Source of the DNA: Asticcacaulis sp. ZE23SCel15
GTDB taxonomy: Bacteria > Pseudomonadota > Alphaproteobacteria > Caulobacterales > Caulobacteraceae
NCBI RefSeq assembly: GCF_030505395.1
Contig: NZ_CP130044.1
Span: 2,217,001-2,281,000, forward strand
Direction of reading: 5' to 3'
DNA length: 64,000 nt
Positions 27,849 to 46,826 of the stretch are shown here, in pieces. The position numbers and the translations under genes are program-made. The notes under the pieces were generated by a model that was given only the letters and a program-made list of their open reading frames with translations, was not told the origin of the DNA and made no database searches. The first letter of the stretch is position 1; the number at the start of each line of letters is the position of its first letter.

Positions 27849-28598
27849 TTAAGGGCGCGGGGCGCTGCGTCTGAGGGTATCAAAGTGGGCCACAAGCCGG
27901 TAGCGCGTGCCGTCATAGGTCTGACGCACCGTAGTAATGCGCTCTGGCCCGCTCCAGGTGCGTCGGTCGAGCACGAGGCAGGCTTGACCTTTTTCGATCC
28001 CCAGTCGCCGCGTCAGTTCGGCATCGGCCTCGGTCGCGCTGATCTCATTTTCCACCTGCGTCCACGGCACAGCCTCCAGAAGCCAGTGACCGGGCGACAG
28101 GCGGCTGAAATCAATTGCTTCGGCTTGCGGCACAGCGGCCAGATTGATCAGCCGCTCCTCGACCGCCAGCGGTTTTCCGGACGCCAAGTGTAGCCCGGTC
28201 AGGCTTAAGACCCGGCCATCCTCTCCGGCCAGTTCGCGCTCTTTTGCGGTTACGGCGGTGCGCACACGCCGCTCGATCAATTCAAAGCCGTAAAACTCGC
28301 CGCGCGCGGTAATGTCTATCTGGATATCGGGAATGTCGATGACGGTTGAATCGAGGCGCGGCAGTTTGACAAAGGTGCCCGCCCGTTTACGGCGCTCAAT
28401 CAGGCCTGCCGCCGATAACGCCGACATGGCCTTATTCACCGTCATGCGTGAGCAGTTATAGACCGTCATCAGTTCATGCTCAAAAGCCACCTTTTGCCCC
28501 GGCATCAGCACGCCGGAGCGGATTTGATCCTCAAGGTCGCGGCGGATCTGGACATGCAGCGGTAGGGCGGGCTTACCAGGGTCGCTGAGGGCGGTCAT
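27849..28598 (-). CDS. hutC: Histidine utilisation repressor HutC (GntR/HutC family)
   Basis: A 249-residue GntR protein. The winged HTH spans about residues 10-80 (FEHELMTVYNCSRMTVNKAM, then GLIERRKRAGTFVKLPR) and a UTRA effector domain follows, including the HutC signature HWLLEAVPWTQVENEISA. In the family it binds urocanate and releases hut promoters. It overlaps hutF by 4 bases (ATGA), so it is co-transcribed behind it and autoregulated. Confidence 0.95.
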   Translation of the reverse strand: MTALSDPGKPALPLHVQIRRDLEDQIRSGVLMPGQKVAFEHELMTVYNCSRMTVNKAMSALSAAGLIERRKRAGTFVKLPRLDSTVIDIPDIQIDITARGEFYGFELIERRVRTAVTAKERELAGEDGRVLSLTGLHLASGKPLAVEERLINLAAVPQAEAIDFSRLSPGHWLLEAVPWTQVENEISATEADAELTRRLGIEKGQACLVLDRRTWSGPERITTVRQTYDGTRYRLVAHFDTLRRSAPRP

Positions 28599-29953
28599 GA
28601 CAACAGCCGCTCCATCAGGCGAGCATAGTCATCTGTGATCGCATCACGTGCCACATGCCGTCCGTCGCTGACCCATTTGCGTCCATGCCGCCAGACGCAG
28701 TCAATCGCGCCCGTTGAGGTCGCAAAAATCAGGCTGTCGATCACGTCTTTGTCCCCCTTACCCGCCAGTGAGGGATGGCGGGCGTTGAGGCTGACTATAT
28801 CCGCACTGTGGCCGACGGCAAGGCCTACGCCCGTGCCCAAAGCTTGGCCCCCGCCGGAGAGGGCCGCGCCGAATAATCGCTCTCCGGTCGAGCCACCAGA
28901 CGTCGCCAAAACATTGCGGGCGCGGTGGTGCAGGCGTTGCGGATATTCGAGCATCCGCAGTTCCTCAACCATACTGATCAGCACATTGGAATCCGAGCCA
29001 ATCCCGAACCGACCGCCGTGTTTAAGGTAATCTGCCGCCGGGAAAATGCCGTCGCCCAGATTGGCTTCGGTGATCGGGCACAGGCCGGCGACGGCTTTGG
29101 AACGGGCCAGCCGCAGGGTCTCGTCGTCAGTCATATGGGTGGCATGCACCAGACACCACTGGGCATCGACGCTGACGTGATTGAGCAGCCATTCGACCGG
29201 GCGCTGACCACTGTGGGCCACGCAGTCATCGACCTCACGCGTTTGTTCGGCGATATGAATGTGGATCGGCGCGCCTTCGGCCAAAGGGATGAGGGCGTTC
29301 AGTTCGTCACCCGTCACCGCCCGCAGGGAATGGGGGGCGATGCCGACCACGGCATCCGGCAGGTGTGCGGCGTGCCGACGCGCACCCTCAAGTAACCGTG
29401 CAAACCCGCTGATATCGTGGACGAAACGCGCCTGTCCTTCAGAGGGGGGCTGACCGCCAAAGCCCGAATGGGCATAGAAAACCGGCAACAGGGTCAGTCC
29501 CATGCCGGTCTGATCCGCCGCAGCACAGATCATGGCCGACATCTGGGCCGGATCATTAAAGGGTTGCCCGGATTGATCGTGGTGCAGGTAGTGAAATTCC
29601 CCGACGCGCGTAAAGCCGGCCTCCAGCATTTCCATATAGGCCAGCGAAGCGATAATTTTAAGCTCATCCGGCCCGATGCGGCCCTGAAGGCGGTACATCT
29701 GTTCCCGCCAGCTCCAGAACGAATCCGCGGACGGTCCCCGTCGTTCGGTCAGGCCCGCAATCACCCGCTGAAAGGCATGGCTGTGCAGGTTTGGCATCCC
29801 CGGCACACCTATGGCATGGCGCTCATCATCGGCTTCGGGCAGGGTGTCTGCCGCAATCGAAATGATCCGGCCACCCTCGATCTTAAGACGTACCCCGTGC
29901 GCCCAGCCGTGGCTCAGAAGGGCGCGGTCAAACCATAGATGCGAACGGCTCAT
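28595..29953 (-). CDS. hutF: Formimidoylglutamate deiminase HutF
   Basis: A 452-residue amidohydrolase that converts N-formimino-L-glutamate to N-formyl-L-glutamate and ammonia, the branch step of the five-step histidine pathway. The metal motif NLHSHAFQR and the signature ADSFWSWREQMY are clear, as is the distal GSDSNVLISMVEEL. It is divergent from hutI and shares the operator region at 30029-30060. The presence of hutG downstream fits this route. Confidence 0.95.
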   Translation of the reverse strand: MSRSHLWFDRALLSHGWAHGVRLKIEGGRIISIAADTLPEADDERHAIGVPGMPNLHSHAFQRVIAGLTERRGPSADSFWSWREQMYRLQGRIGPDELKIIASLAYMEMLEAGFTRVGEFHYLHHDQSGQPFNDPAQMSAMICAAADQTGMGLTLLPVFYAHSGFGGQPPSEGQARFVHDISGFARLLEGARRHAAHLPDAVVGIAPHSLRAVTGDELNALIPLAEGAPIHIHIAEQTREVDDCVAHSGQRPVEWLLNHVSVDAQWCLVHATHMTDDETLRLARSKAVAGLCPITEANLGDGIFPAADYLKHGGRFGIGSDSNVLISMVEELRMLEYPQRLHHRARNVLATSGGSTGERLFGAALSGGGQALGTGVGLAVGHSADIVSLNARHPSLAGKGDKDVIDSLIFATSTGAIDCVWRHGRKWVSDGRHVARDAITDDYARLMERLLS

Positions 29954-30028
29954 CCTGTTGTTCCACTGATGTTTACGGGTAACCTAAAAATATTTTGCAC
30001 GGCAGCATAATCGCGCTTGCCAATGGAT

Positions 30029-30060
30029 ATGTCTATACATTATCAAAAATGTCTAGACTT
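30029..30060. promoter_or_regulatory. Paired HutC operators between hutF and hutI
   Basis: ATGTCTATACAT (30029-30040) and ATGTCTAGACTT (30049-30060) are two palindrome-like boxes 20 bases apart centre to centre. They share the TGTCTA half-site with the site upstream of the TBDR at 36263-36274. They lie in the divergent promoter and should bind HutC. Confidence 0.75.
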
Positions 30061-30099
30061 ATTTTCGTCATGGTTTCCTCCTGACACAGGCTGACTGTC

Positions 30100-31308
30100 A
30101 TGCACTGCGATTGCCTCTGGAAAAATGCCCGTTTGCTGGTCACGCGACCGGATGAGACCGGCTTTGTCATCATTGACGGCGGCGTGGTGGCGGCGGCTGA
30201 TGGGCGCATTGTCTATGTCGGGCCGGCGCGGGATAATCTGCAAACTGACAGGGTTTATGACGTTGGGGGGCGGCTGATAACGCCGGGTCTGATTGATCCT
30301 CATACCCACCTTATCTACGGCGGTGACCGCGCCCATGAGTTCAAGCTGCGGCTTGAAGGCGCGTCCTATGAAGAGATCGCCCGCGCGGGCGGCGGGATCG
30401 TTTCGACCATGAAAGCGACCCGCGCGGCCAGTGAAGCGGAGCTGATCGCCCAGGCCCTGCCGCGGCTCGATGCGCTGTTGGCGGAGGGGGTATCAACCAT
30501 TGAGATCAAGTCGGGATACGGCTTGACGCTGGAGGATGAGCTTAAGATGCTGCGGGCGGCGCGAGCCCTCGAAGGATTGCGGCCCGTGCGTATCAAGACC
30601 ACGTTTCTGGGAGCGCACGCACTGCCGCCGGAATTTGCCGGTCGGGCGGATGACTACATAACTGAGGTTTGTGAGCGGATGATCCCGGCTGTGGCCGCCG
30701 AAGGGCTGGCTGATGCGGTCGATGTCTTCTGCGAAGGCGTCGGGTTTAGCCCCGCCCAAACCGAGCGGGTGTTTCAGGCGGCGCGGGCACATGGCCTCCA
30801 CATCAAACTCCATGCCGAACAGTTATCGAACCTGAGCGGGTCGGCACTGGCGGCGCGATATAGCGCCCTGTCGGCGGATCACCTTGAATATCTGGATGAT
30901 GTGGGTATTGCCGCCATGAAGGCGTCCAGCACGGTGGCGACCCTGCTGCCGGGGGCGTTTTATTTTGTGCGGGAAACCAAACTGCCGCCGGTTCAGGCTT
31001 TGCGCGACGCCCGCGTGCCTATGGCGCTGGCGACCGACTGCAATCCGGGCACGTCGCCGCTGACGTCGCTTTTGCTGGTCATGAACATGGCCGCGACCCT
31101 GTTTCGGATGACGGTCGATGAGTGTCTGCTGGGGGTGACGCTGCACGCGGCCCGCGCCTTGGGTCTGCACGCAGAAACCGGCAGCCTTGAGGCCGGTAAG
31201 GCTTGCGATCTGGCGATCTGGGACGTCGAGACACCGGAACAACTGGTCTACCGCATCGGTTTTAATCCGCTTTTCGCGCGCGTTTTCAATGGAGTACATT
31301 ATGAGTGA
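30100..31308 (+). CDS. hutI: Imidazolonepropionase HutI
   Basis: A 402-residue metal-dependent amidohydrolase that opens imidazolone-5-propionate to formiminoglutamate, the third step of histidine breakdown. The motifs [43 protein letters not shown] and [12 protein letters not shown] are all typical of HutI. It is the first gene of the + strand hut operon and overlaps hutH by 8 bases. Confidence 0.97.
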
Positions 31309-32833
31309 GTTGGTTCTGGTCGCGGGCGCGGTATCTTTGAGCGAATGGCTGGCCATCTATCGCGGGGCTACGTTCAGGCTGGATGCGGAGTGCCTGCCCA
31401 AGGTCGCCGAAAGTGCCGCTGCCATCGGTCGTATCCTCTCAAAAGGTGAGCCGGTCTATGGCATCAATACCGGGTTTGGTAAGCTGGCCTCGACGCGCAT
31501 TGACGATGCAGACCTTGCGACCTTGCAGCGTAATATCATTTTGTCCCATGCCGCCGGTGTCGGTGCGCCGTCGCCCAAATCGGTGGTGCGCTTGATGATG
31601 GCGCTTAAGCTGGTCAGTCTGGCGCAGGGCGCCTCCGGCATTCGGCCTGAGACGCTGGGGCTTATGCAGGCAATGCTCGATCACGACCTGATCCCGATTG
31701 TGCCGTGCCAGGGCAGCGTTGGCGCATCCGGCGATCTGGCACCGTTGTCGCACATGGCCGCCGCTATGATCGGTGTGGGCGACATTGATGCTTCCGGCGT
31801 GGTTATGCCCGCCATGGATGCCCTGACCTCAGCCGGTCTATCGCCGCTCGCCCCCGGCCCGAAGGAAGGTCTGGCGCTGCTCAACGGCACGCAGTTCTCA
31901 ACCGCCAACGCTCTGGCCGGTCTGTTCGAAGCCGAAGTTTTGATGCAGACGGCGCTGGTGACCGGGGCCTTATCGACCGAAGCGGCCAAGGGATCGGACG
32001 CGCCGTTTGATGCGCGTATCCACAATCTGCGCCGCCATAAGGGCCAGATCGATACGGCGGCATCTTTGCGTGAGTTGATGAGCGGGTCAGCCATCCGTGC
32101 CTCCCACCTCAAGGGCGATGAGCGCGTGCAGGACCCGTACTGCCTGCGTTGCCAGCCGCAGGTCATGGGGGCGATCCTGGATATCCTGCGTCAGGCGGCG
32201 GTGACCTTGCTGACCGAAGCCAATGGCGTGACGGATAATCCGCTGATTTTCACGGATCCGGATGAGGCGCTGTCTGGCGGGAATTTCCACGCCGAGCCGG
32301 TCGCCTTTGCGGCTGACATGATCGCCATGGCGGTCTGCGAAATCGGGTCTTTGTCTGAGCGCCGTATCGCCATGCTGGTTGATCCGGCGTTGTCAGGCTT
32401 GCCCGCGTTTCTGACCCCAAGACCGGGCCTCAATTCCGGCTTTATGATCCCGCAGGTAACGGCGGCGGCGTTGGTGTCGGAAAACAAGCAGCGCGCCTAT
32501 CCGGCCTCGGTCAATTCTATCCCTACCTCAGCCAATCAGGAAGATCACGTCTCGATGGCCGCCCACGGGGCGCGTCGGTTGATGGAGATGTGCGAAAACG
32601 CCTTTGCGGTCATCGGGATTGAGCTTCTGGCGGCGGCCCAAGGGGTTGATTTCCATGCACCTTTGACTTCATCGGACGCGCTGGAGCGGGTGCGTGATCT
32701 GACCCGCCGGGCGGTGCCTTCGCTGGATCACGACCGCCATTTCCATCCTGACATGCAAAAAGCCATTACCCTGGTGCGCTCAGGCGCGATCGCCGCAGTG
32801 GCCGAACTTAAACTGCCGGACGTGGCGGCATGA
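31301..32833 (+). CDS. hutH: Histidine ammonia-lyase HutH
   Basis: A 510-residue lyase that deaminates histidine to trans-urocanate. The Ala-Ser-Gly triad that forms the MIO prosthetic group is at residues 142-144 ([15 protein letters not shown]). [10 protein letters not shown] and NPLIF are also conserved. I chose the ATG at 31301 because it gives the standard MIO position and overlaps the hutI stop (ATGAGTGA); a longer frame to 31187 runs through hutI. It is coupled to hutG by an ATGA overlap. Confidence 0.97.
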
Positions 32834-33642
32834 CAGCGCTCGAAATTCATCGCGGCGACGCTCCGCTGATTGTCGCCTTTCCGCATACGGGTACGGACAT
32901 TCCGCCCGATATCGAAGCGCGTCTGGTTGATCCGTGGCGGGCGCGCAAAGATTGCGACTGGTGGATTGATCAGTTGTACAGCTTTGTGCGCGATATGGGT
33001 GTAACCACCGTCCGCACCACGATGTCGCGTACGGTCATTGACGTAAATCGCGATCCGTCCGGCGCGTCGCTCTATCCGGGGCAGGCGACGACGGAACTGT
33101 GCCCGACCACCACCTTTGATGGTGAGCCCTTGTATCGGCACGGCTGGGCACCGGATGAAACCGAAATCAGCCATCGCCGCACCGTTTGGTTTGATCCTTA
33201 TCATGAAGCCCTTGAGGCGGAGATCGCGCGCCTGAAAGCGGTTCATGACACGGTTGTACTCTATGATGCCCATTCGATCCGCTCAAATGTGCCGCGCCTG
33301 TTTGAGGGCGAACTGCCGCAGTTCAATATCGGCACCAATAACGACACAACTTGCGATCCGGCTTTAAGCGAAGCGGTAAAAAGCGTTTGTGAACAGAGCG
33401 GTTTCAGCCATGTCCTGAATGGTCGGTTCAAGGGTGGATGGACGACCCGCCACTATGGTCAGCCGCTTATTGGGGTACACGCTATCCAGATGGAGTTGGC
33501 CTGCCGCGGTTATATGTATGAACCATCAACAATTGATTTTGCCAACTGGCCCACGCCCTTTGACGCAGATCGCGCGCGCGCTCTGCAAACCCAGCTTTCT
33601 CATATTTTAGCCGCCGTTCTGGCGTTCGCTGCCCGCAATTAA
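32830..33642 (+). CDS. hutG: N-formylglutamate deformylase HutG
   Basis: A 270-residue zinc hydrolase (N-formylglutamate amidohydrolase family) that releases formate and glutamate. Family motifs are [39 protein letters not shown] and [14 protein letters not shown]. It starts inside the hutH stop. Together with HutF it completes the five-step route to glutamate. Confidence 0.96.
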
Positions 33643-33652
33643 GGAGTATAAA

Positions 33653-35332
33653 ATGAACTCTCATCCTACATTTCCGGGCAATGTCCGCGTCATTAAGCCC
33701 GCTACGGGCACGCAACTGTCCGCCAAAAGCTGGCTGACCGAAGCGCCCCTGCGAATGTTGATGAACAACCTGCATCCCGATGTGGCCGAACGCCCCGAAG
33801 ATCTGGTGGTTTACGGCGGGATCGGCCGCGCCGCCCGCGATTGGGACAGCTATGACAAGATCGTTGAGACCCTGCGCCGTCTGGAGGACGATCAAACTCT
33901 GCTGGTGCAGTCCGGCAAGCCGGTCGGTGTGTTTCAGACCCACGCCAATGCCCCACGCGTGCTGATCGCCAATTCCAATCTGGTGCCGAAATGGGCGAAC
34001 TGGGAGCACTTCAACGAACTCGATAAAAAGGGTTTGATGATGTACGGCCAGATGACGGCCGGATCGTGGATCTATATCGGCACGCAAGGCATCGTGCAGG
34101 GCACCTATGAGACCTTTGTCGAGATGGGCCGCCAGCATTATAACGGCTCGCTGGCAGGTAAATGGCTGCTAACCGCAGGACTGGGCGGCATGGGCGGGGC
34201 ACAACCTCTGGCGGCGGTTATGGCCGGGGCGTCGTGTCTGGCCATTGAGTGTCAGGCGTCGCGCATCGATATGCGTCTGCGTACCGGCTATCTGGATCGC
34301 TCAACCGAAAGCATTGATGAGGCGCTGGCGTGGATCGAAGAGTCGTGCGCCGCCAAAACCCCGATTTCGGTCGGCTTGCTCGGCAACGCTGCCGACATTC
34401 TGCCGGAATTATTTAAGCGTGGGGTGCGGCCTGATTTGCTGACCGATCAGACCTCGGCCCATGACCCGATCAACGGTTACCTGCCGTCAGGCTGGAGCGT
34501 GGATCAGTGGCAAACGGTGCGTGAAACCGACCCGGAATCGGTCGCCAAGGCGGCTAAGGCGTCGATGGCCCAGCATGTCCGCGCCATGCTCGATTTCGCC
34601 AAGGCTGGTGTGCCCACGACCGATTACGGCAACAATATCCGTCAGGTGGCCAAGGACGAAGGTGTGGAGAATGCCTTTGATTTTCCTGGGTTTGTGCCGG
34701 CCTATATCCGTCCGCTGTTCTGCCGCGGAGTCGGGCCCTTCCGTTGGGTGGCCCTGTCGGGCGATCCTGAAGATATCTACAAAACCGACGCCAAGGTCAA
34801 AGAATTGCTGCCCGACAACGCGCACTTGCATAACTGGCTGGATATGGCGCGCGAGAAGATCAAGTTTCAGGGCCTGCCGGCGCGGATTTGCTGGGTCGGT
34901 CTGGGCGATCGTCATCGTCTGGGTCTGGCCTTCAATGAGATGGTCAAAAGCGGTGAACTGAAAGCGCCGATCGTCATTGGCCGTGACCACCTCGATTCGG
35001 GGTCGGTCGCGTCGCCTAACCGTGAGACCGAGGCCATGAAGGACGGATCGGACGCGGTGTCTGACTGGCCGCTGCTCAATGCGCTGCTGAATACGGCGTC
35101 CGGTGCGACCTGGGTGTCTTTGCACCACGGCGGCGGGGTCGGCATGGGCTATTCGCAGCATTCGGGCATGGTCATCGTCGCTGATGGCACCGAAGATGCG
35201 GCCCAGCGTCTGGGGCGTGTGCTGTGGAACGATCCGGCTACAGGCGTCATGCGCCATGCCGATGCCGGATACGATATTGCGCTCGACTGCGCCCGCGAAA
35301 AGGGTCTCGATTTGCCCGGAATTTTGGAGTGA
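33653..35332 (+). CDS. hutU: Urocanate hydratase HutU
   Basis: A 559-residue urocanase, standard length, converting urocanate to imidazolone propionate with NAD+. The N-terminal [15 protein letters not shown] region, [20 protein letters not shown], the [12 protein letters not shown] nucleotide loop and the Cys-containing [20 protein letters not shown] are clear. It begins 10 bases after hutG and overlaps hutD by 4 bases. Confidence 0.98.
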
Positions 35333-35874
35333 TCCGCTTTCTGCCCGCCAGCGCACGCGTGCCTCAGTCGTGGAAAAACGGCGGCGGGGTCACGCGTGAG
35401 ATCACTGTGTCGCCGCCCGGTGCGTCCATGACCGATTTCGACTGGCGCATCAGCATGGCCACGGTCGATGCCGCGGGGCCGTTTTCTGCCTTTGCGGGCA
35501 TCGACCGGCATTTGACGGTGCTGGAAGGGCATTTACACCTGACGGTGGACGACTATGCGCACCCGTTACAGGCCGGGCAGGGGCTGACCTTTGCCGGTGA
35601 TGTTCCGGCGCAGGGCGAACCGCGCGGCGGGCCGGTGACCGATCTGAACGTTATGACCCGGCGGGGGCGGTTTATGGCCACGGTTACGATTGTGGCACCG
35701 CAGGCGAGACTTACGCCCTTTGCCGGGGCGACGGTTTTGCTGGCGTGCGCGACCACGGTCGTGTGCAGTCATAAGTTTAACATCTATGACGCGCTGTGGC
35801 TGGATGACTGGCCGACCGACGGTGCGGTGAACGGCGCGGGTGAGCTGATCCGCATCGATATACTGAGCGTCTGA
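35329..35874 (+). CDS. hutD: HutD-family protein
   Basis: A 181-residue cupin-like HutD. The family start is visible ([46 protein letters not shown]). HutD proteins are thought to buffer or govern histidine flux; the molecular role is not settled. I place the start at GTG 35329, which overlaps the hutU stop as GTGA and keeps the complete HutD N-terminus; an upstream ATG at 35224 would lie deep in hutU. It is the last gene of the operon, ahead of a terminator. Confidence 0.9.
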
Positions 35875-35900
35875 AATAACTATGTTTAGTCTCGAATAAG

Positions 35901-35930
35901 GGCCGCAGATTTCGATCTGCGGCCTTTTTA
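35901..35930 (+). terminator. Intrinsic terminator of the hut operon
   Basis: A 10-bp stem (GGCCGCAGAT at 35901-35910 with ATCTGCGGCC at 35915-35924) closes a TTCG tetraloop and is followed by TTTTTA. It lies 27 bases past hutD. Confidence 0.9.
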
Positions 35931-36171
35931 GTGTCCGTTTCACAGAACCCATCATGAGCGAGTTGAGTCATTTAGCCTCTGGGTTGAGCCGCGATGAGGT
36001 CACGGTTCCGCATTGTGAAAAAAATACGACGACGGTTTTCACTTATGTGTAATTAATTGTTGCGGTGCGTGACAATTGCAGTTCACGCAACTGTAAAAAG
36101 ATGAAATATCAGGTCATTGCATAAAATGACCTGTATTGTAATGAATTGAAAATAAATAATTTAATCCGAAC

Positions 36172-36183
36172 TATGTATACATA
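36172..36183. promoter_or_regulatory. HutC-like operator, distal
   Basis: TATGTATACATA is a perfect 12-bp palindrome. It resembles the HutC consensus (TGTATATACA-like) and is 91 bases centre to centre from the proximal box. Confidence 0.5.
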
Positions 36184-36262
36184 ATAAAGAATATTTGTTG
36201 CGACGGATACGGCTTCGCAGGTGCGTAAAAAGAGTTGACGATGTCTGAATGTCGTTGTGAAT

Positions 36263-36274
36263 ATGTCTAGACAT
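36263..36274. promoter_or_regulatory. HutC-like operator, proximal
   Basis: ATGTCTAGACAT is a perfect 12-bp palindrome 67 bases upstream of the TBDR start. It matches the box at 30049-30060 in the hut promoter at 11 of 12 positions and the box at 30029-30040 at 11 of 12. Confidence 0.75.
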
Positions 36275-36340
36275 AATTTCTCACGCTGTCTGATCCGGTG
36301 ATCAGTTCGGGGCTGTGGGAATCTGAAAGGGGATATTCAG

Positions 36341-38653
36341 ATGGCGACCAACACGAAAGCGTTTCACGGTATGCGCGTCCAATCTTTACGTCTGGCCTTG
36401 CTGACCACTTCTATGATGGCGGCGGCAAGTTTCGCCTATGCTAATGACGCGGCTGATCCCGCAGATGCCGTTGCCGCCGATGAACCGGTCGCGGAAGTGG
36501 TGGTCACAGCCACCAAGCGTAACACCAAGCTTCAGAAAACCCCGATGGCGATTTCGGCGGTCACCGGTGATACCCTGGCCAAGGTTGGCGCCATGACCAT
36601 GGACGAATATGTCAAGTTCGTGCCGTCGCTGAAAGTCTCCGATGACGGTCCTGGCCGTGGCCGGATCAGCCTTCGTGGTATTCAGGGCACTGGCGAAGCT
36701 CTGGTCGGCGTGTTCTACGACGAAGCCCCGATCACCGGTTCGGTCGGCGTGTCTTCGGATGCCGGTGGCCGTAACCCGGACACGACTGCGACCGACGTTG
36801 AGCGCATCGAGGTCCTGCGCGGCCCGCAAGGCACCATGTACGGCGGCTCGACCATGGGCGGCGCAGTCCGCATCATCATGAAAAAGCCGCGTCAGGTCTA
36901 TGAAGGCTTTGTCTCCGGCAATTATTCCAGCGTTGACGGCGGCAAGGCTAATCATCAGTTATCGGCCATGGCCAACGTGCCGCTGATCGAGGATAAGCTG
37001 GCGGCCCGTGTGGTGATGTATGAGCGTGAGCAGGGCGGCTGGATCGACAACCGCTACCTCGACCGCGAAGACATCAACAAAAGCACCACCAAGGGCGGGC
37101 GCCTGCTGCTGCGCTATACCCCGCTCGATAACCTGACCATCGATGCCGCGGCCTTTGTACAAAGCACGGATGCCGTGTCCAACAATAACTGGAACCCGGC
37201 CTACGGCGACTATGTGCAGGAGTCAAAGCTGCTGCTGCCTTACGAAGAGGACACCAAGGTCTATTCGCTGTCGGCCAATTGGGATATCGGTGACTACACC
37301 ATCACCGGGTCATCAAGCTATTTCGTGGCTAAGTCGATCTATGCGGCGGACGATACCGCCTATGTGGCCAGCTACCGCACGCCGGCGCGCTGCTCGGCCT
37401 ATCTGGGCGTGACCTGCGTGGCGGGCACCCAGCAATACACAGACTATCTGGCCTATGTGAATTCCTACTATCCGGCCGCGATCTACTATCCGGACGAGGT
37501 GCGTAACTGGACCAACGAAATCCGCGTCAGCTCCAACTATTCCGGGCCGATCAACTTCACGGCGGGCGTCTATTATGAAAACCGCGATCAGGACACGGTC
37601 GGTTCCGACGTTCTGGCCGATGAAGCCACGGGTGAGCTGATCAAGCCGATCAAGTTCATCTATCACCGCTATGTCGATGATCATCTGGAGCAAAAGGCGA
37701 TATTTGGTGAAGTCAATTATGACGTAACCGATAAGTTGAAGGTCACTCTGGGCGGCCGTTACTTTGAGTATGAAAAGTCCGTGGGTGGTGAGACCGATGT
37801 GCCTTGGGATCTGATCGGCGCGACCTACCGTCCGTACTATGTGCGCCGGACCAAGGAAGACGGCACCCTGCTGAAGGTCAATGCCAGCTACGAGTTCAAT
37901 GACGATATCATGGCCTATGTGAACGTGGCCGAAGGCTATCGTCCCGGCGGCGTCAACCAGACCTTTGGCCTGCCCGATGCCCTCATCCCCTATGAGTCCG
38001 ACAGCCTGACCAACTATGAGGCCGGTATCAAGACGGGCTGGTTCGACCGTACCCTGTATGTCAACGCCGCGCTCTACATGGTCAAGTGGGAGAACATGCA
38101 GGTGTCGGGCCGCACCCCCAACGGTGCGTTCAGCTTCATCTCTAATGCCGGTGCGGCTGAGGTCAAGGGCTTTGAACTGGAATCAACCTGGACGCCCCTT
38201 CCGGGCCTGACGGTCAGCGGCAACTACAGCTATAACGACGCCCAACTGACCGAAGACCAGATCAATTCATATGTGACTGCGGCTGGCCGCAAAGGCGACC
38301 GCATCACCTTCATCCCTAAGAACAAGGGCGCGATTTCGGCCGATTACAGCCGCCCGCTTACCGCTTCGCTTAAGGGCTTTGTGCGCGGTGATGTCAACTA
38401 TGTCGGCATTTCGTACTCCGAACTGTCAACGGCCAATGTCTATCGCATGAAGAACCCGGCCTATACCCTTGCCAATCTGCGCGCCGGTTTCAGCCCGCTG
38501 GACGGCAACTGGGAAGCGTCGGTGTTCGTTCATAACCTGTTCGATCATGTCGCCATCACCCGCCTGACCAATTCTTCGACCACCCCGATTGGTGGTTCGG
38601 CGGTTTCGGCCCTGCCACGCACCGTCGGCGTCAGCCTGACCAAGAAGTTCTGA
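36341..38653 (+). CDS. TonB-dependent receptor (putative histidine-peptide receptor)
   Basis: A 770-residue receptor of the classical siderophore-receptor-like type, shorter than the carbohydrate TBDRs here. The signal peptide ends near FAYANDA. A TonB-box-like EPVAEVVVTATKRNTKLQK is followed by the plug (KTPMAISAVTGDTL, IEVLRGPQGTMYGGSTMGGAVR) and a barrel ending in VGVSLTKKF. There is no STN domain. HutC-type boxes lie upstream and a large M14 carboxypeptidase follows, so I infer import of histidine-rich or other peptides. The substrate is not shown by the sequence. Confidence 0.9.
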   Translation: MATNTKAFHGMRVQSLRLALLTTSMMAAASFAYANDAADPADAVAADEPVAEVVVTATKRNTKLQKTPMAISAVTGDTLAKVGAMTMDEYVKFVPSLKVSDDGPGRGRISLRGIQGTGEALVGVFYDEAPITGSVGVSSDAGGRNPDTTATDVERIEVLRGPQGTMYGGSTMGGAVRIIMKKPRQVYEGFVSGNYSSVDGGKANHQLSAMANVPLIEDKLAARVVMYEREQGGWIDNRYLDREDINKSTTKGGRLLLRYTPLDNLTIDAAAFVQSTDAVSNNNWNPAYGDYVQESKLLLPYEEDTKVYSLSANWDIGDYTITGSSSYFVAKSIYAADDTAYVASYRTPARCSAYLGVTCVAGTQQYTDYLAYVNSYYPAAIYYPDEVRNWTNEIRVSSNYSGPINFTAGVYYENRDQDTVGSDVLADEATGELIKPIKFIYHRYVDDHLEQKAIFGEVNYDVTDKLKVTLGGRYFEYEKSVGGETDVPWDLIGATYRPYYVRRTKEDGTLLKVNASYEFNDDIMAYVNVAEGYRPGGVNQTFGLPDALIPYESDSLTNYEAGIKTGWFDRTLYVNAALYMVKWENMQVSGRTPNGAFSFISNAGAAEVKGFELESTWTPLPGLTVSGNYSYNDAQLTEDQINSYVTAAGRKGDRITFIPKNKGAISADYSRPLTASLKGFVRGDVNYVGISYSELSTANVYRMKNPAYTLANLRAGFSPLDGNWEASVFVHNLFDHVAITRLTNSSTTPIGGSAVSALPRTVGVSLTKKF

Positions 38654-38660
38654 TCTGACT

Positions 38661-38695
38661 AAGGCCCGCACGATTTGAACCGTGCGGGCCTTGTT
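38661..38695 (+). terminator. Hairpin between TBDR and M14 peptidase
   Basis: A 12-bp stem (AAGGCCCGCACG at 38661-38672 with CGTGCGGGCCTT at 38681-38692) is followed by a weak TTGTTTA. It probably allows partial read-through so that the peptidase is made at a lower level. Confidence 0.7.
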
Positions 38696-38721
38696 TATAA
38701 AAAGTAAGAGGGATCTACAAA

Positions 38722-41265
38722 ATGTTACAGCGGGTTAAACTAAAAACCTATGCGATGCTGGCTGCCTCCGTGTTGGCGCTGGCAACTGCCCCGATAGCGC
38801 TGGCAGACGTGCCGACCGCCGTCTCCGTGATCGGCTTCACGCCCGGCGATGACTATAAACTCGCCAACTATCAGGACTCGATCAAATATTTCAAAGCGCT
38901 GGCCGCCAGTTCCGACAGCATCAAGATGGTTGAGGCGGGCAAGTCTACCCAGGGCCGTGTCATGGAATATGCGGTGATTTCATCGCCCACAAACCTGGCC
39001 AAGCTTGATCACTACATCGATATCTCCAAGAAGCTCAGCGGTGCCCGTGGTCTGACCGACGATCAGGCGAAAGCCTTAGCCAAAGAAGGCAAGGTCATCA
39101 TCCACATCGACGGCGGTATGCACGCCTCCGAAGTGGCCGATCACCAGTTGCCGCTGGCTCTGGCCTATAAGCTGTTGTCGTCACCGAACGACCCCGAAGT
39201 GCAGGCCATTCTTGACAACGTCATTCTGGTGCTGTGGCCAACGCTGAACCCTGATGGTCAGGACATGGTCGTTGACTGGTATCGCAAGAACCTCGGCACC
39301 AAGTATGAAACCAGCCGCATGCCCTATCTCTATCAGGATTATGTCGGTCACGATAATAACCGTGACGGCTATATGCTGAACATGAAGGAAAGTCGCGTCG
39401 CAACCTCGGCTGCCCACGATTACGATCCGGTGATCTGGTACTCGCAGCATCAGGTAGCCCCGTTCCCGGCCCGTATCTGGATGCCGCCGTTTGCTGATCC
39501 GGTATCGTCGAACATCAGCCCCTACATGCGCATCTGGACCAGCGCCATCGGCACCAACATGATGGCCCGCTTTGAATATGAGCAAAAGCCGGGCGCGATC
39601 GCTCAGGCACGCTTTGACAACTGGTATGCCGGTTTCCTCGACTACACCCACGTCTTCCGCAATACGATCTCGTTCTTTACCGAAGTCGCCCACAATTCCG
39701 CCACGCCCAAGGTCTATGACCCCAAGGACTTCCCCAAGAAGACCCAGGATTTCAAGGCCCAGATCATGTATCCGAACCCGTGGAAGGGTGGGCTGTGGCG
39801 CCTGAAGGATTCGGTCGATTACATGATGACCGCGTCGATGTCGGTGCTCGATACCGGTGTGCGCTATAAGGAAGTCTTGCTCTATAACCGCTATCAGGCC
39901 GGACGCGACAATATCAAGAAGTTCCCGTCCGAAGGCTTGCACGGCTATGTCATCCCGGCCGGTCAGACCGATATGGGGGAAGCGGCCGAGCTGACGCAAA
40001 AATTCATCGATCTTGGCGTCGAAGTTCATCAGGCGAAATCCGAAATCACGCTTGGCGGCAAGACCTACCCGGCCGGATCGTTCGTGCTGCTGACCGATCA
40101 GCCGTTCTCCGGTCTTATTCCTGAATTGCTGGGCATCCAGAAATATCCGGACGCCATTCTGGCCGGTGACGGCACGGCGGCAGAACTGCCTTACGACACA
40201 ACCGGCTGGACCCTGCCGCTGCAGATGGGGGTAACGGCTGAGGCTGTAACCGCTCCGGTGGGTACGGCAGAACGCGGCCAACTGACCAAGATCACCACAG
40301 CTTCGGCTCCGGCGGGTGCTATCACGGGTAAGGGCAGCCGCTATGTCCTTAGCCGTAAGGTCAATGCGTCCTATGCGGCGACCAATGATGTCATTAAGGC
40401 GGGCGGCAAGCTGGCCTATGCCAAGTCGACCGGTGATTTCGTCGTCACCGGCCTGAAGCCCGCCGCCATGCAAACGATTGCCTCAAAGCATAAGCTGGCG
40501 GTCACGACCGCGGCGTTTGGCACCAGCACCAACTCGCTTAAGCCTGCCCGTATCGGCATGTACCGGCCGTGGGGTTCCAACATGGACGAAGGCTGGACGC
40601 GCTGGATTCTGGAGCAGTACAGCTATGGCCTGACCAGTGTTTATAATGGCGATGTCAAGGCCGGCGCTTTGGATGATAAGTTCGACACGATCATCCTGCC
40701 GGACATGGGTGGCCGTCGCACCGGCGCGCTCAAGTCGCTCAAGGAGGGCCTTAGCGCCGAAGACACCCCCGCAGACTATGCGGGCGGTATCGGTGACGAG
40801 GGGGCTGAAGCTCTGAAAAGCTTCGTGTCCGAAGGCGGCACCCTGGTGGTCATGAACAACACCTCCGATGCCATTATCGAGCTGTTCGGCCTGCCGGTCA
40901 CCAATGTCCTCAAGGACGTAAAGCCGGAAGTGTTCTTCTGCGCCGGGGCCTTGCTTGAGGTCGAACTGGGTGAGGCGTCTGAGGTCACCGCCGGTTTGTC
41001 GGCCAAGCCGATTATCATGTTCCAGGGCGGTCCGGCCTTTGAGGTTAAGGACGGCTTTAAGGGCAAGGTGCTGGCGTCTTACGCTAAGGATGCAAGTCCG
41101 CTGCGCTCAGGCGTTATCCACGGCCCTGAAACCATTCAGGGTAAGGCGGCGGCCCTTGAGGTCGAATACGGTAAGGGCAAGATCCTGCTGTACGGCTTTG
41201 AACCGCAATGGCGCGGCCAGACCCATAATACCTATAAGTTCGTCTTCAACAGCTTTTATAAATAA
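38722..41265 (+). CDS. Secreted M14-family zinc carboxypeptidase
   Basis: An 847-residue protein with a signal peptide (PIALADVP). The N-terminal third is an M14 peptidase domain: the zinc motif HASE is at residues 134-137 (IDGGMHASEVADHQ), LWPTLNPDGQDMV gives the conserved NPDG/R-type segment, and YSQHQVAPFPAR has a candidate third His ligand. The C-terminal half contains a glutamine-amidotransferase-like/ThuA-type fold region (for example GALKSFVSEGGTLVVMNNTS) whose role is unclear. It follows the TBDR and probably trims imported peptides in the periplasm. Confidence 0.88.
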   Translation: MLQRVKLKTYAMLAASVLALATAPIALADVPTAVSVIGFTPGDDYKLANYQDSIKYFKALAASSDSIKMVEAGKSTQGRVMEYAVISSPTNLAKLDHYIDISKKLSGARGLTDDQAKALAKEGKVIIHIDGGMHASEVADHQLPLALAYKLLSSPNDPEVQAILDNVILVLWPTLNPDGQDMVVDWYRKNLGTKYETSRMPYLYQDYVGHDNNRDGYMLNMKESRVATSAAHDYDPVIWYSQHQVAPFPARIWMPPFADPVSSNISPYMRIWTSAIGTNMMARFEYEQKPGAIAQARFDNWYAGFLDYTHVFRNTISFFTEVAHNSATPKVYDPKDFPKKTQDFKAQIMYPNPWKGGLWRLKDSVDYMMTASMSVLDTGVRYKEVLLYNRYQAGRDNIKKFPSEGLHGYVIPAGQTDMGEAAELTQKFIDLGVEVHQAKSEITLGGKTYPAGSFVLLTDQPFSGLIPELLGIQKYPDAILAGDGTAAELPYDTTGWTLPLQMGVTAEAVTAPVGTAERGQLTKITTASAPAGAITGKGSRYVLSRKVNASYAATNDVIKAGGKLAYAKSTGDFVVTGLKPAAMQTIASKHKLAVTTAAFGTSTNSLKPARIGMYRPWGSNMDEGWTRWILEQYSYGLTSVYNGDVKAGALDDKFDTIILPDMGGRRTGALKSLKEGLSAEDTPADYAGGIGDEGAEALKSFVSEGGTLVVMNNTSDAIIELFGLPVTNVLKDVKPEVFFCAGALLEVELGEASEVTAGLSAKPIIMFQGGPAFEVKDGFKGKVLASYAKDASPLRSGVIHGPETIQGKAAALEVEYGKGKILLYGFEPQWRGQTHNTYKFVFNSFYK

Positions 41266-41331
41266 CTGAACTACAGGGAAAATAATCGCGAAGTAGACTA
41301 ATCCTCAGTTAGTAAGCATAAGCGTGTGAAG

Positions 41332-41365
41332 CGGCGGGCCTCAGAAGCGTGAGGGCCGCCGTTTT
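41332..41365 (+). terminator. Intrinsic terminator after the M14 peptidase
   Basis: Arms 41332-41343 and 41350-41361 (CGGCGGGCCTCA with TGAGGGCCGCCG) pair with one mismatch around GAAGCG and are followed by TTTT. It lies 66 bases past the stop, before the convergent HutC-like gene. Confidence 0.75.
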
Positions 41366-41389
41366 GCGTTTAATATGCCGTCAGATTAG

Positions 41390-42130
41390 TTAAGCCTTTT
41401 CAACCTCGTCGCGGGTTGATCGCGCGATGAGGCGGTAGGTTTTGCTATCGAATATCTGCCGCACCGTCGTAATGCGTTCATCCGCTCGCCAGGTGCGCCG
41501 CTCAACCATCAGACAGACCATCTTACGGTCGCCCCACAGGCGACGGGCCGTGTCGGCATCGGCATTGATGGCGCTGATCTGGTTTTCCACCTGCGTCCAC
41601 GGTACGGCCTCCAGCAACCAGTGACCGGGGGATTGCGCGCTGAAATCGGCATGTTCGGCTTCTGGTACGGCGCCCAGATTGATGAGGCGGTCTTCATGGC
41701 CCATAGGCCGCTCCGCCGCATAATGCACGCCGGTAAGGTGCAGGATGCGCCCGCCTTTGCCCGCCAGTTCTATCTCGTCCGGCCCGGAGGCGGTACGAAC
41801 GGTTTTGGAGGTTAGTTCAAACCGATAGGTTTCACCACGCGCGGCCACCTCAATCTGGATGTCCGGTACATCCAGAACGGTCGAATCGACCCGCGGCAAT
41901 TTAACGAAACTGCCCGCCCGCTTGCGCCGCTCAATCAATCCCTCAGCGCTCAGAGCCGACAAGGCCTGATTGACCGTCATGCGTGCACAGCCGTATGCCT
42001 GCATCAATTCGTGCTCAAACGGGATTTTGTGGCCCGGACGTAAGGTGCCGTCGTTGATCTGCGCTTCGATATCCTGACGGATGCGCAGGTGAAGCGGACG
42101 TTTGTCGGCTGTTGGGTTATCGGTAGTCAT
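41390..42130 (-). CDS. Second HutC-like GntR/UTRA repressor
   Basis: A 246-residue paralogue of HutC at 27849. The recognition-helix region (ARMTVNQALSALSAEGLIER, then RKRAGSFVKLPR) is almost identical to that of HutC, and the UTRA motif HWLLEAVPWTQVENQISA is conserved. I infer it binds the same TGTCTA-type palindromes and responds to urocanate or a related compound. It converges on the M14 peptidase. A half-site TCTATACAG lies at its own start codon. Confidence 0.9.
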   Translation of the reverse strand: MTTDNPTADKRPLHLRIRQDIEAQINDGTLRPGHKIPFEHELMQAYGCARMTVNQALSALSAEGLIERRKRAGSFVKLPRVDSTVLDVPDIQIEVAARGETYRFELTSKTVRTASGPDEIELAGKGGRILHLTGVHYAAERPMGHEDRLINLGAVPEAEHADFSAQSPGHWLLEAVPWTQVENQISAINADADTARRLWGDRKMVCLMVERRTWRADERITTVRQIFDSKTYRLIARSTRDEVEKA

Positions 42131-43951: not shown

Positions 43952-46826
43952 ATGTCTGGTTTCAATCTGTCCCGCGCGGCGCTTTTAGGCTCGGTCGCGA
44001 TCATCGGAGTTGTGGCTCCTCTCAGCATAGTTCAGGCGCAGTCGGCCGCGCGTGAATATAATGTACCGGCTCAAGCGGCCCAGAGCGGCCTGCAAACGCT
44101 TGGCGCTCAGAGTGGCTTGCAAATCATAGCGCCGCAGCCCGATCTGATGAATAAACGCATCAACGCAGTCGAGGGCCGCATGGATGCACAGGCGGCCTTG
44201 CGCAAAGCGATTGCCAACACCGGGCTTGAAGTCGTTTCCAATAACGGCGCCGTCGTCGTGCTGCGCGCCGCGCAAACAAAGCCGGCCACACCTTCCGCTC
44301 AACCCGTCGTCGCCCACAATGCTGCCGCCGAGGTGATCGAAGAAGTTACCGTCGTCGCAACCCCCATTCAGTACAGCCTGCGCAAATCCATTCAGGCCCA
44401 ACGCAACGCGACCAACGTCGTCAATGTTATCGCTTCTGACACTATCGGTCGTTTCCCCGATCAGACGGCGGCGGCAGCACTTTCACGTTTGCCAGGCGTT
44501 GCCGTTCAGCGTGATCAGGGTCAGGAGCGATATGTTCAGGTGCGCGGTGCCCCGGCGCGTTGGTCGTCAGTTGCCTTTAACGGCGTAGCGATCTTAGGGG
44601 CTGAAGACCGTGTGTTTCGCTTTGACAGCGTACCTTCGGCACTTATCGGTCAGCTTAATCTGAATAAGACGCTGGATGCCTCCATGCCGGCCGAGTCCCT
44701 GGCGGGCTATATCGATATCAAAACCTATTCGGCGCTGGCTAATCCGGGATTCCATGGTCAGGCCGATTTAGGTTCTGGCTTTGTCGATCTGGGTGATGGG
44801 CCGCAAACCCAGTATTCGGGGCGCGTATCGTGGGCCAATGACAAGTTTGGCGTCGTACTGGCCGGATCTCATTTTGCATTCGAGCAGCAAACCGACAATG
44901 CCGAACCACGCTATGACGCTACGGGTGTTTCACAGCTTCGTACCGCTAAGTACGTCATCCAGCGCGAAACCAATTCGCTGTCGGCGGCTTTAGAATATGC
45001 ACCGGCGGCGGGGCATAAGCTAAGCTTCACCACGCTTTATAACGAATTTATCGACGACGAAGAGCGCAATCAGTACACCTTTTACTTTAACGGCGGCACC
45101 GGTACACGCAATTTTCAGACCGCAAACCTGACCGGTGTCGAAGTGCGAGGCCTGTTCAACAAGGGCGGCCAGGAAACCTCAGTGCTCTATAATGTCGCGC
45201 ACGGTGAGCATAATCTGAACGGCTGGATACTGGATTGGGACATCGGCCATCACAAGAGCGTCCTCGAAAGCGGCAGTCCACTGATCGAACAGTTCCAGAG
45301 TGCCGGGCAGCGTCCGGGCGTCAGCTATGTGCTGGGTGAGGGTAATATTCCGACCCTTACCCTGTTCAATCCAGTGGCTCAGGGTGGCGGGCAGCGCACC
45401 AGCCTGGATCAGATGGCCTTCAGTCAGGAGCGCATTACCTGGTCGGGTTCAAAGCGCGAAACGACCGATAAGATTGTCCATGCCGATGTCTTTCGGGAAT
45501 GGACAAATTTTGGGGCGGCCGCCCGTTTCAAGGCCGGTATTCATTTCAATGATCGCAAGTTCACCGATGTCGGCAGCTATGCCAACGTAACCCCTGCCGG
45601 CGGCACCGGTATCTTCGATGCTCGCGTCGTGAGCGCGGCCCTTGGCGTTGAGTGGAACCCGAACAGCTTTGTTCAGCTTCGTCCGGTCGATGAAGATTTC
45701 AGCCGCGGCTTTACGTTCAACTATATCGACAACGCTGCCATGCGCGCCCGTTCCGAAGCGCTGATCAATGCGGCGCGGGCCGCCAATGCCAGCGGTGCCA
45801 ACTATGCCGTGCCGCAACTGTCGCCAAGCCAACGCGCCGAAATCAAGGAAAAGATGACGTCGGCCTATGCGATGAATACCTGGCAGTGGCAGACGCAGAT
45901 GCTGCAAATCGGTCTGCGGGCAGAGAAGGTTGAAACGACCTCGACCGGTACGGCGACGATCAACGGCGTGGCTCAGCCGATCGTGATTGATAACGAGTTC
46001 CACCAAGGTGTTCCCCAGCGTTCACTGGAACATGGACGTGACCCCCGATGTCAAGGTGCGGGCCGCCTATGTCAGCGGCTCAGCCCGCCCATCTTTCGGC
46101 AGCATGTCGTCCTCGGTCAGCATCAATGACGCCAACACCACCGTATCCGGCGGCAATCCGGCGCTGGAAGCTGAAACAGCGCAGGGCTTCGACGGTTCGG
46201 CAGAATGGTACTTTGCCCCGTCATCGGTTCTGTCGGCCAATGTCTTTTATCGCAAGGTGACTGACGTGCTGTTCTCGAACACGACCGTGGTGGGAGACGA
46301 CCGCTTTAACACCAGTGGCATTGATCGTTCGGCTTATAGATATTCAACCACGGTCAATGGCGATGATGGCAAATTCTACGGTCTGGAAGTGGCCTACAGC
46401 CAGCCGTGGCGGTTCCTGCCGGGTGCATTCTCCGGCCTTGGCATGGAAGCCAGCCTGACCTTCCTTGAAGGCGAGTTTACCACGCCAGCTGGCCGCGAAA
46501 CCGCATTCCCCGGTACCTCTGACCGGGTGAGCAATGTGTCGCTGTTTTATGAAAAGTACAATGTCTCGGCGCGTCTTAGCTACCAACATCGTACCGGCTG
46601 GCTTGATGAAGTCGGGGCCAGCGCGTCAGCCGACATGTGGTGGGACCCGTCCGAGCGTCTGGACTTTTCCGGTCGTTATTACATCAGTGATAACCTGTCA
46701 GTCTATGTGGACGCCAATAATCTGACGGATGAGCTGGGCCGCCGCTATCAGGGCGCAAAAGAGCGTACCTATGAACTCGAAGGCTTTGGCCGCCGCTTCA
46801 TGGTCGGCGTTCGCGCCAACTTCTGA
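43952..46826 (+). pseudogene. STN-type TonB-dependent receptor, split by a frameshift near 46000
   Basis: The first frame (43952-46129) has a signal peptide (SIVQAQSA), an STN domain (REYNVPAQAAQSGLQTLGAQ to about residue 110), a TonB-box-like EEVTVVATP and the plug with LSRLPGVAVQRDQGQERYVQ. The barrel runs on to INGVAQPIVIDNEF, after which the frame becomes nonsense. The barrel resumes in another frame with KVFPSVHWNMDVTPDVKVRA and ends RRFMVGVRANF. Removing one C from TTCC at 45998-46001 restores a 957-codon gene. It follows its sigma and FecR genes. It may be a real pseudogene or a base-calling error. Confidence 0.85.

What the first reader, a model, noticed from the sequence alone, without database searches (positions are those of the whole stretch)
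27849..42130. A hut-linked peptide scavenging system: two HutC repressors, shared operators, a TBDR and a large M14 carboxypeptidase
Seen in sequence: palindromes with TGTCTA half-sites at 30029-30040 and 30049-30060 (hutF/hutI promoter) and at 36263-36274 (67 bases before a TBDR gene), plus a perfect TATGTATACATA at 36172-36183. Also seen: a second HutC-like protein (41390-42130) whose recognition region differs from HutC by only a few residues. Known: HutC binds such palindromes and is released by urocanate. Inferred: the TBDR and M14 peptidase are induced together with histidine breakdown, so the module imports and trims histidine-containing peptides whose histidine feeds HutH. I know of no described system with this make-up.
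Basis: partly seen in the sequence, partly recalled or inferred. Interest (0 to 1): 0.75.

Follow-up and report, generated by a model that had tools for sequence, protein, structure and literature searches.

The report
Histidine-linked outer-membrane importer and peptidase
Next to its histidine-breakdown genes this bacterium carries an outer-membrane importer and a secreted carboxypeptidase that appear to be controlled by the same repressor, a link already predicted for an importer of this kind but, as far as I found, not for the peptidase or for the extra copy of the repressor.

Summary
Three of the four reported palindromes fit the HutC operator (one with a mismatch). The fourth (36172-36183) has the wrong spacing and is not conserved. 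The second HutC is real: it passes the HutC equivalog cut-off. Comparison supports the TBDR-M14 pair as a HutC-regulon module. I found 16 genomes with an M14 orthologue of about 54% identity or more (Asticcacaulis and other Caulobacteraceae, sphingomonads, Shewanella mangrovi). All 16 have hut genes or hutC within about 16 kb, and 14 have the TBDR next to the M14. Upstream of the module 13 have an exact box and 3 a one-mismatch box; controls gave 0 of 26 TBDRs and 1 of 77 M14s. Of 72 more distant M14 loci, one has a HutH-like neighbour and none another hut gene. A HutC-controlled TBDR in Caulobacterales and Sphingomonadales was already predicted by Leyn et al. 2016. I found no mention of the peptidase or of a dedicated extra HutC. 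HutC2 is an in-genus paralogue under purifying selection; a similar TBDR-M14-HutC row, unlinked to hut, occurs in one sphingomonad. Histidine peptides as cargo are inference. Verdict: new variant of a known kind, moderately interesting.

The parts
27849..28598 (-). hutC1, histidine-utilisation repressor
   Evidence: TIGR02018 266.6 bits (cut-off 220), GntR+UTRA
28595..29953 (-). hutF, formimidoylglutamate deiminase
   Evidence: NF006683 and TIGR02022 over cut-off
30029..30040 (.). HutC-type operator ATGTCTATACAT (hutF/hutI divergent promoter)
   Evidence: exact box between hutF and hutI in most hut loci fetched
30049..30060 (.). second, weaker operator ATGTCTAGACTT, 20 bases from the first
   Evidence: one mismatch to TGTNTANACA; a pair of exact boxes 20-21 bases apart in the related loci L024-L032 and L042
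30100..31308 (+). hutI, imidazolonepropionase
   Evidence: TIGR01224 484.7 bits
31301..32833 (+). hutH, histidine ammonia-lyase
   Evidence: TIGR01225 667.3 bits
32830..33642 (+). hutG, N-formylglutamate deformylase
   Evidence: TIGR02017 429.6 bits
33653..35332 (+). hutU, urocanate hydratase
   Evidence: TIGR01228 983 bits
35329..35874 (+). hutD
   Evidence: PF05962 158.4 bits
35898..35927 (+). strong terminator-like hairpin with T tract after hutD, probably separating the hut transcript from the TBDR
   Evidence: fold -21.7 kcal/mol, z -5.46; sequence; not listed by the simple terminator scan
36263..36274 (.). perfect HutC-type palindrome ATGTCTAGACAT upstream of the TBDR
   Evidence: only TGTCTAGACA in the genome; identical in 5 of 5 loci of the window clade, one-mismatch form at the same place in A. 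tiandongensis
36341..38653 (+). TonB-dependent receptor, 770 aa (Plug + barrel)
   Evidence: in each of 8 other genomes the best match is the hut-linked TBDR
38661..38692 (+). hairpin between TBDR and M14, possible attenuator or processing site
38722..41265 (+). M14 metallocarboxypeptidase, 847 aa, N-terminal signal-like sequence (by eye)
   Evidence: PF00246 70.8 bits; H134, E137, N213, R214, H243, E321 invariant in 48 rows; carboxypeptidase A fold, Foldseek E 5.8e-9
41326..41367 (+). hairpin between the convergent M14 and hutC2 genes
   Evidence: fold -31.7 kcal/mol, z -5.2
41390..42130 (-). hutC2, second HutC
   Evidence: TIGR02018 265.1 bits; in-genus paralogue; dN/dS 0.05-0.09; no box within 300 bp upstream

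Best explanation
The TBDR and the M14 carboxypeptidase form an accessory supply module of the histidine-utilisation (hut) regulon. HutC repressor bound at 36263-36274 blocks the TBDR-M14 promoter and at 30029-30060 blocks the divergent hutFC/hutIHGUD promoter. When histidine is being broken down, urocanate releases HutC and both units are expressed. The TBDR then brings histidine-yielding substrates, most likely short peptides, into the periplasm. The exported M14 enzyme removes C-terminal residues there, and the released histidine enters the HutH-HutU-HutI-HutF-HutG route. HutC2 arose by duplication within the genus and most likely shares the operators with HutC1, giving the module its own repressor. 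Shown: the genes, the boxes, their conservation, the linkage, the M14 fold and active-site residues, and the paralogy. Inferred from known HutC biology: urocanate release and promoter blocking. Inferred only from genomic context: peptides as cargo, and the role of HutC2.
For: Hut-type M14 orthologues (about 54% identity or more) come from three sources: 8 of 80 loci; 6 of 149 Caulobacteraceae genomes (where 45 of 149 have any match at 1e-60); and 5 of 298 genomes of the Sphingomonas family sample (where a sixth, G681 at 38%, is not counted). Without overlaps they make 16 genomes. hutC or hut genes lie within about 16 kb in 16 of 16 and a TBDR is adjacent in 14 of 16, the exceptions being G005 and G594. 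The box upstream of the module is exact in 13 of 16 and has one mismatch in 3 of 16. Controls: 0 of 26 non-hut TBDRs, and of 77 non-hut M14s 1 exact and 3 with at most one mismatch. In G594, which lacks the adjacent TBDR, the box lies directly before an M14-hutC pair. Gene order differs among Asticcacaulis, sphingomonads, G701 and Shewanella, so this is not one inherited order. G608 carries TBDR-M14-HutC with a box before the TBDR, far from its hut operon. In each of 8 genomes with 30-131 first-look TBDR candidates, the hut-linked TBDR is the best match. Known HutC site TGTA-N2-TACA (PMC12977541, passages).
Against: Neither binding nor expression was tested. Five of the 16 genomes are the window's own close clade, so the 16 are not independent. 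G005 has no TBDR next to its M14, which lies about 16 kb from hutC, and its box has one mismatch. The terminator-like hairpin between TBDR and M14 may reduce or prevent read-through. The promoter scan listed no sigma-70-like site at the TBDR box. The peptide cargo rests on context alone. In the Caulobacteraceae sample 75 of 149 genomes have a HutC match but only 6 of 149 the M14 orthologue, so the module is optional for histidine use.
Confidence: 0.68

Rival explanations
1. The TBDR imports free histidine, or a histidine-metal complex, across the outer membrane, as Leyn et al. suggest for histidine uptake. The M14 enzyme serves general peptide turnover and merely shares the promoter.
For: Leyn et al. 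2016 name their TBDR as potentially involved in histidine uptake. Other HutC paralogues in G088 and G793 sit near TBDRs and PepSY-TM proteins, fused in G088 to flavodoxin reductase domains, a make-up that hints at metal handling. The window TBDR's best sequence matches among solved structures are the pesticin receptor and siderophore receptors.
Against: Hut-type M14 orthologues are hut- or hutC-linked in 16 of 16 genomes and TBDR-adjacent in 14 of 16. G594 keeps the M14 behind a box without an adjacent TBDR. Related TBDRs also sit near M14 paralogues away from hut, which points to peptides for this TBDR group.
Confidence: 0.22
2. HutC2 no longer acts on the hut boxes. It is a diverged repressor for another target, for example the adjacent fecI-fecR-TBDR cluster, or senses a different ligand.
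For: HutC2 carries a K-to-Q change in the recognition helix (ARMTVNQA) seen in all 5 HutC2 rows and in none of the other 31 rows aligned. No exact box lies within 300 bp upstream of hutC2. hutC2 is divergent from fecI. One genome, G531, has an extra HutC over the cut-off with no hut, TBDR or M14 hit in the 20 kb fetched, so an extra HutC need not serve such a module.
Against: Ten of 12 residues of the recognition stretch and the PWTQVEN segment of the effector domain are kept. hutC2 lies beside the module in all 5 loci that have it. G608 has a TBDR-M14-HutC arrangement with a canonical box.
Confidence: 0.25
3. The boxes and the neighbourhood are chance.
For: In the window alone, TGTNTANACA with one mismatch is no commoner than in shuffles, and the genome has fewer exact places than its reversed control.
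Against: Conserved position across genera with clean controls; linkage in different gene orders.
Confidence: 0.03

Closest known systems
HutC regulon of Caulobacterales and Sphingomonadales as reconstructed by Leyn et al. 2016 (PMC5343134)
   Same: HutC, hut enzymes with HutF, HutG and HutD, and a HutC-controlled TonB-dependent outer-membrane transporter (passages read)
   Different: The passages read mention no M14 peptidase and no second HutC.
HypR (proline/hydroxyproline) regulon of Alteromonadales, same paper
   Same: An amino-acid catabolic GntR repressor whose regulon is extended to a TBDR, secreted collagenases and peptidases (passages)
   Different: Different repressor and amino acid; collagenases and proline peptidases instead of an M14 enzyme.
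Pseudomonas HutC-hut system (PMC12977541, abstract and passages)
   Same: GntR/UTRA repressor, TGTA-N2-TACA operator, histidine/urocanate response
   Different: The main text has no match for the words TonB or peptidase; the passages read speak of one HutC per genome.
M14 carboxypeptidases A and T (PDB 2ctb, 1obr)
   Same: Fold; conserved zinc-site and Asn-Arg residues (roles recalled)
   Different: 10-16% identity in the listed matches; large extra C-terminal part; linked to hut.
RagAB peptide importer of Porphyromonas gingivalis (PMC11817032, search listing with start of abstract only)
   Same: TonB-dependent import serving a proteolytic lifestyle
   Different: A TBDR with a separate lid protein; no lid protein was noticed here, though none was searched for.

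Membership tests
HutC (TIGR02018) | score over curated cut-off with GntR and UTRA domains | tested here: met
   266.6 and 265.1 bits against 220; PF00392 and PF07702. Both score far below the cut-off of the enterobacterial-type model NF011575.
HutC (TIGR02018) | binds TGT-N4-ACA operators and is released by urocanate | not testable with these tools
   operators of this form present; no binding data
HutC operator (30029, 30049, 36263) | TGTA-N2-TACA geometry (10-mer, TGT-N4-ACA) | tested here: met
   30029 and 36263 boxes exact for TGTNTANACA; 30049 box has one mismatch
HutC operator at 36172-36183 | same geometry and conservation | tested here: not met
   TGT-N2-ACA; changed in 3 of 5 other loci aligned
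five-step hut pathway with HutF and HutG | HutH, HutU, HutI, HutF, HutG all present | tested here: met
   all over NCBIfam cut-offs
TonB-dependent receptor | Plug and beta-barrel domains | tested here: met
   PF07715 64 bits, PF00593 138.7 bits
TonB-dependent receptor | substrate identity | not testable with these tools
   best solved sequence matches are the pesticin receptor and siderophore receptors
M14 metallocarboxypeptidase | CPA fold, HxxE...H zinc site, catalytic Glu, Asn-Arg carboxylate site | tested here: met
   the roles of the residues are from recalled carboxypeptidase A knowledge
HutC regulon with TBDR (Leyn et al. 2016) | HutC box upstream of a TBDR in Caulobacterales/Sphingomonadales | tested here: met
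   identity of their TBDR with this one not checked
histidine-peptide utilisation system | growth on histidine peptides dependent on TBDR and M14 | not testable with these tools
   bench test only

The most novel reading that the evidence does not exclude
HutC has repeatedly been duplicated to run dedicated substrate-capture modules: TBDR-M14-HutC here and, separately, in G608; TBDRs with PepSY reductases and an S9 peptidase in G088; a TBDR in G035; and, with a single HutC, TBDR, PepSY, M20 and CstA genes in G793. Each module-bound HutC would tune its module to a different histidine source, in this window histidine-containing peptides, perhaps by sensing a ligand other than urocanate. This would be a peptide counterpart of polysaccharide-utilisation loci, centred on one amino acid.
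Probability: 0.3. Interest if true: 0.65.

Novelty: new variant of a known kind. Interest (0 to 1): 0.43.

Why it matters
TBDRs are numerous in these bacteria (30-131 first-look candidates per genome; 21-60 in the listed members of the window's genus), and by general knowledge few have a known cargo. A TBDR-M14 pair tied by operator and linkage to one catabolic pathway gives a specific, testable cargo prediction. It would extend the idea, described for HypR, that amino-acid repressors recruit outer-membrane import and proteolysis. The extra HutC copies offer a natural case for studying how a paralogous repressor is kept beside a shared operator.

Tried and rejected
Tried and rejected: (1) the 36172 palindrome as a HutC box, for its spacing and lack of conservation. 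(2) Further HutC targets in this genome: besides the two places in the locus, TGTCTATACA occurs just before a CheA-like open frame and inside a NuoM-like one (gene labels by eye); taken as chance. Of the other 11 exact places only one was looked at (L009). (3) A sequence match of the M14 to a solved structure: none; the fold search gave the answer instead. (4) A box before hutC2: none in 300 bp. (5) Import of hutC2 from outside the genus: the tree puts both HutCs in one 100/100 genus group, though the order inside it is open and the root is a midpoint root.

Limits: the large genome searches scored only the best few first-look candidates (2-7 per genome), so absences are soft, for example, G005 is listed only with a TBDR of 42% elsewhere. 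In the class-wide sample 1 of 385 genomes, the window's own, had the M14 orthologue. Of 19 genomes with a TBDR match I fetched the surroundings of 10. Many of the 72 distant M14 loci are short contigs (some 4-8 kb), so missing neighbours there mean less; L049 among them has a 58% partial segment. The M14 alignment used 47 loci plus the window; I listed 49 of 80 loci and dropped 2 for stops or frame. The HutC tree used 36 of 37 hits, one duplicate dropped. In the box control I left out L136/L147, a TBDR with an exact box and a HutC nearby but no M14, and the duplicates L026/L149. The chance estimate is a base shuffle, not a dinucleotide shuffle. L126-L130 were fetched because TBDR and M14 hits lay near each other, so they show that such pairs exist, not how common they are; among 12 non-hut TBDR loci chosen by TBDR score alone (L131-L133, L135-L137, L139-L144), 5 have an M14. 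Paper searches cover open-licence PMC papers only; one search found 24 papers and listed 10. Papers seen: passages of PMC5343134, PMC12977541 (with abstract), PMC3400609 and PMC4830024 (the last two held nothing on HutC and histidine-linked TBDRs); the rest as listings.
Full report
The window is 2,217,001-2,281,000 of a 3.77 Mb single-contig genome. Its proteins at this locus are 88-100% identical to those of Asticcacaulis sp. UBA2476 (L041), so the organism is an Asticcacaulis or a very close relative (inference).

Anatomy. On the minus strand lie hutC1 (27849-28598) and hutF (28595-29953). Divergent on the plus strand lie hutI, hutH, hutG, hutU and hutD (30100-35874). A strong terminator-like hairpin follows hutD (35898-35927). 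Then come the TBDR (36341-38653) and M14 (38722-41265), and the convergent hutC2 (41390-42130). Family results are; both HutCs pass the TIGR02018 equivalog cut-off.

Operators. Three places fit the HutC geometry TGT-N4-ACA, described for Pseudomonas as TGTA-N2-TACA (PMC12977541, passages): 30029, 30049 (one mismatch) and 36263. The fourth, 36172, does not. By count alone such boxes are not rare in this genome: 15 exact places, 20 for the reversed control. The better test is conservation. In five loci of the window clade the 36263 box is identical and starts 78-79 bases before the TBDR start. In A. tiandongensis, whose TBDR is 73% identical and whose promoter is otherwise diverged, a one-mismatch box starts at -78.

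Linkage beyond the genus. The 8 most similar (54-98% on the best segment: Asticcacaulis x2, Novosphingobium x2, Sphingomonas x2, Sphingobium, Shewanella mangrovi) have the TBDR orthologue directly upstream and hut genes beside it in 8 of 8. The other 72 (37-47% in the table) show no hutC, hutF, hutI, hutG, hutU, hutD or TBDR hit at 1e-10; one, L055, has a HutH-like neighbour. Samples of whole genomes gave 6 of 149 Caulobacteraceae, 5 of 298 of the Sphingomonas family sample and 1 of 385 across the class, the window's own. Removing overlaps leaves 16 genomes: the window, G060, G068, G089, UBA2476, A. tiandongensis, G005, the six other named ones, G608, G594 and G701. Gene order differs. In Asticcacaulis it is hut-TBDR-M14. 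In the named sphingomonads it is TBDR-M14 ahead of a convergent hutC-hutF. In G701 it is hutF-hutC-TBDR-M14 on one strand. In Shewanella it is TBDR-M14-hutF-hutC, then a Na+/H+-antiporter-type permease on the other strand (PF03553) and hutIHGU. G594 has M14-hutC about 9 kb from the hut genes without an adjacent TBDR. G005 has its M14 about 9 kb from hutD and 16 kb from hutC, without an adjacent TBDR.

Box test. Upstream of the first gene of the module, 13 of 16 have an exact box and 3 of 16 (A. tiandongensis, S. mangrovi, G005) a one-mismatch box. Controls: TBDRs of non-hut loci 0 of 26, even with one mismatch; M14s of non-hut loci 1 of 77 exact and 3 of 77 with at most one mismatch. Five of the 16 are the window's close clade, so the count is not of independent cases. 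In Shewanella there are similar degenerate sites before hutF and hutI that I read by eye from the printed sequence. For G594 the box is directly before the M14. I take this as good evidence that TBDR and M14 are HutC targets; it is not proof of binding.

The peptidase. In the 48-row alignment (47 loci and the window) H134, E137, N213, R214, H243 and E321 are invariant. By recalled carboxypeptidase A knowledge these are the zinc ligands, the site for the substrate's C-terminal carboxylate and the catalytic glutamate. The model (mean pLDDT 89.1) matches carboxypeptidase A (E 5.8e-9). The protein starts with a signal-like sequence (read by eye). Hut-type enzymes share the string DY(T/I)HVFR before the catalytic Glu in 9 of 9 rows (window, L041-L047, L076); none of the other 39 rows has it.

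TBDR-M14 pairs are a wider theme. TBDR homologues of 39-44% identity lie near more distant M14 paralogues (27-37% identity) in five Caulobacteraceae loci, four of them with fecI/fecR, and in five sphingomonad loci, without hut genes or exact boxes (L126-L130 and L139-L143; how these were chosen is told under limits). I therefore read the window's pair as one branch of a general import-plus-peptidase pairing that came under HutC.

HutC2. Both HutCs lie in one 18-row genus group with 100/100 support (midpoint root). HutC2 forms its own branch (100/99) made of the window, G060, G089, G068 and UBA2476; A. tiandongensis has the module with a single HutC. dN/dS of HutC2 is 0.054 and 0.087 in two comparisons, like HutC1 (0.056 and 0.084), so it is kept under purifying selection. 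It has no box within 300 bp upstream. Its recognition helix has a K-to-Q change unique among the 36 rows. A separate case supports the idea of a module-bound HutC: G608 has one HutC with its hut operon and another, 3.2 Mb away on a 4.1 Mb contig (about 0.9 Mb if circular), in a TBDR-M14-HutC row with a box before the TBDR. Other extra HutCs over the cut-off stand near TBDRs in G088 (two) and G035; in G793 the only HutC over the cut-off stands near a TBDR. Against a general rule, an extra HutC in G531 has no hut, TBDR or M14 hit in 20 kb.

What is known. Leyn et al. 2016 (PMC5343134; passages) predicted a novel TonB-dependent transporter in HutC regulons of Caulobacterales and Sphingomonadales, potentially for histidine uptake, and described an expansion of HypR regulons to collagenases, peptidases and a TBDR. 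I saw no paper on a HutC-linked M14 peptidase or on paired HutCs in the listings, which do not cover subscription journals.

Mechanism and confidence. HutC repression and urocanate release are taken from the Pseudomonas literature. The 36263 box lies 22 bases after a TTGACG (36235-36240, by eye) that is conserved in the alignment, so blocking of the promoter is plausible, though the sigma-70 scan listed no site there. A hairpin stands between TBDR and M14 in 6 of 6 Asticcacaulis loci folded (another sequence in A. tiandongensis, changed but still paired in G068); in G701, NFR15 and Sphingobium wenxiniae none as strong was seen. It may make the TBDR in excess over the M14. Cargo remains open: histidine peptides are favoured because of the constant carboxypeptidase partner; free histidine or histidine-metal complexes are the main rival.

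Noticed in passing
window 43952-47000: A second TBDR gene after fecI-fecR appears frame-shifted near 46000: a TBDR-like reading continues in another frame to about 47000. It could be a pseudogene or a sequence error.
   Followed up: partly
window 36110-36133: An inverted repeat with 9-base arms (CAGGTCATT...AATGACCTG) upstream of the TBDR, unchanged in UBA2476, one base changed in G060 and less alike elsewhere; it may be a site for another regulator.
   Followed up: no
window 38661-38692 and relatives: A strong hairpin between TBDR and M14, present in some form in 6 of 6 Asticcacaulis loci folded, with changed but still paired stem in G068.
   Followed up: partly
L153 (unnamed Caulobacteraceae genome G088): Two HutC paralogues over the HutC cut-off among TBDRs, PepSY-flavodoxin reductase-like proteins and an S9 peptidase, with six exact HutC-type boxes: an import cluster perhaps under HutC.
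   Followed up: partly
L136/L147 (G793): HutC near a TBDR (box upstream), a PepSY protein, and a divergent M20 peptidase, RidA-like (by eye) and CstA set with another box.
   Followed up: partly
L126-L130, L139-L143: TBDR and M14 genes near each other, four of ten with fecI/fecR, away from hut: an apparently general pairing with unknown cargo.
   Followed up: partly
hutF/hutI intergenic region in L024-L032 and L042: Two exact boxes 20-21 bases apart at the hut promoter in these relatives of the window's genus, mostly single boxes in the other hut loci fetched: possible cooperative binding.
   Followed up: no
L055: A Gemmatimonadota MAG with a HutH-like gene (36%) directly before a related M14 gene.
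   Followed up: no
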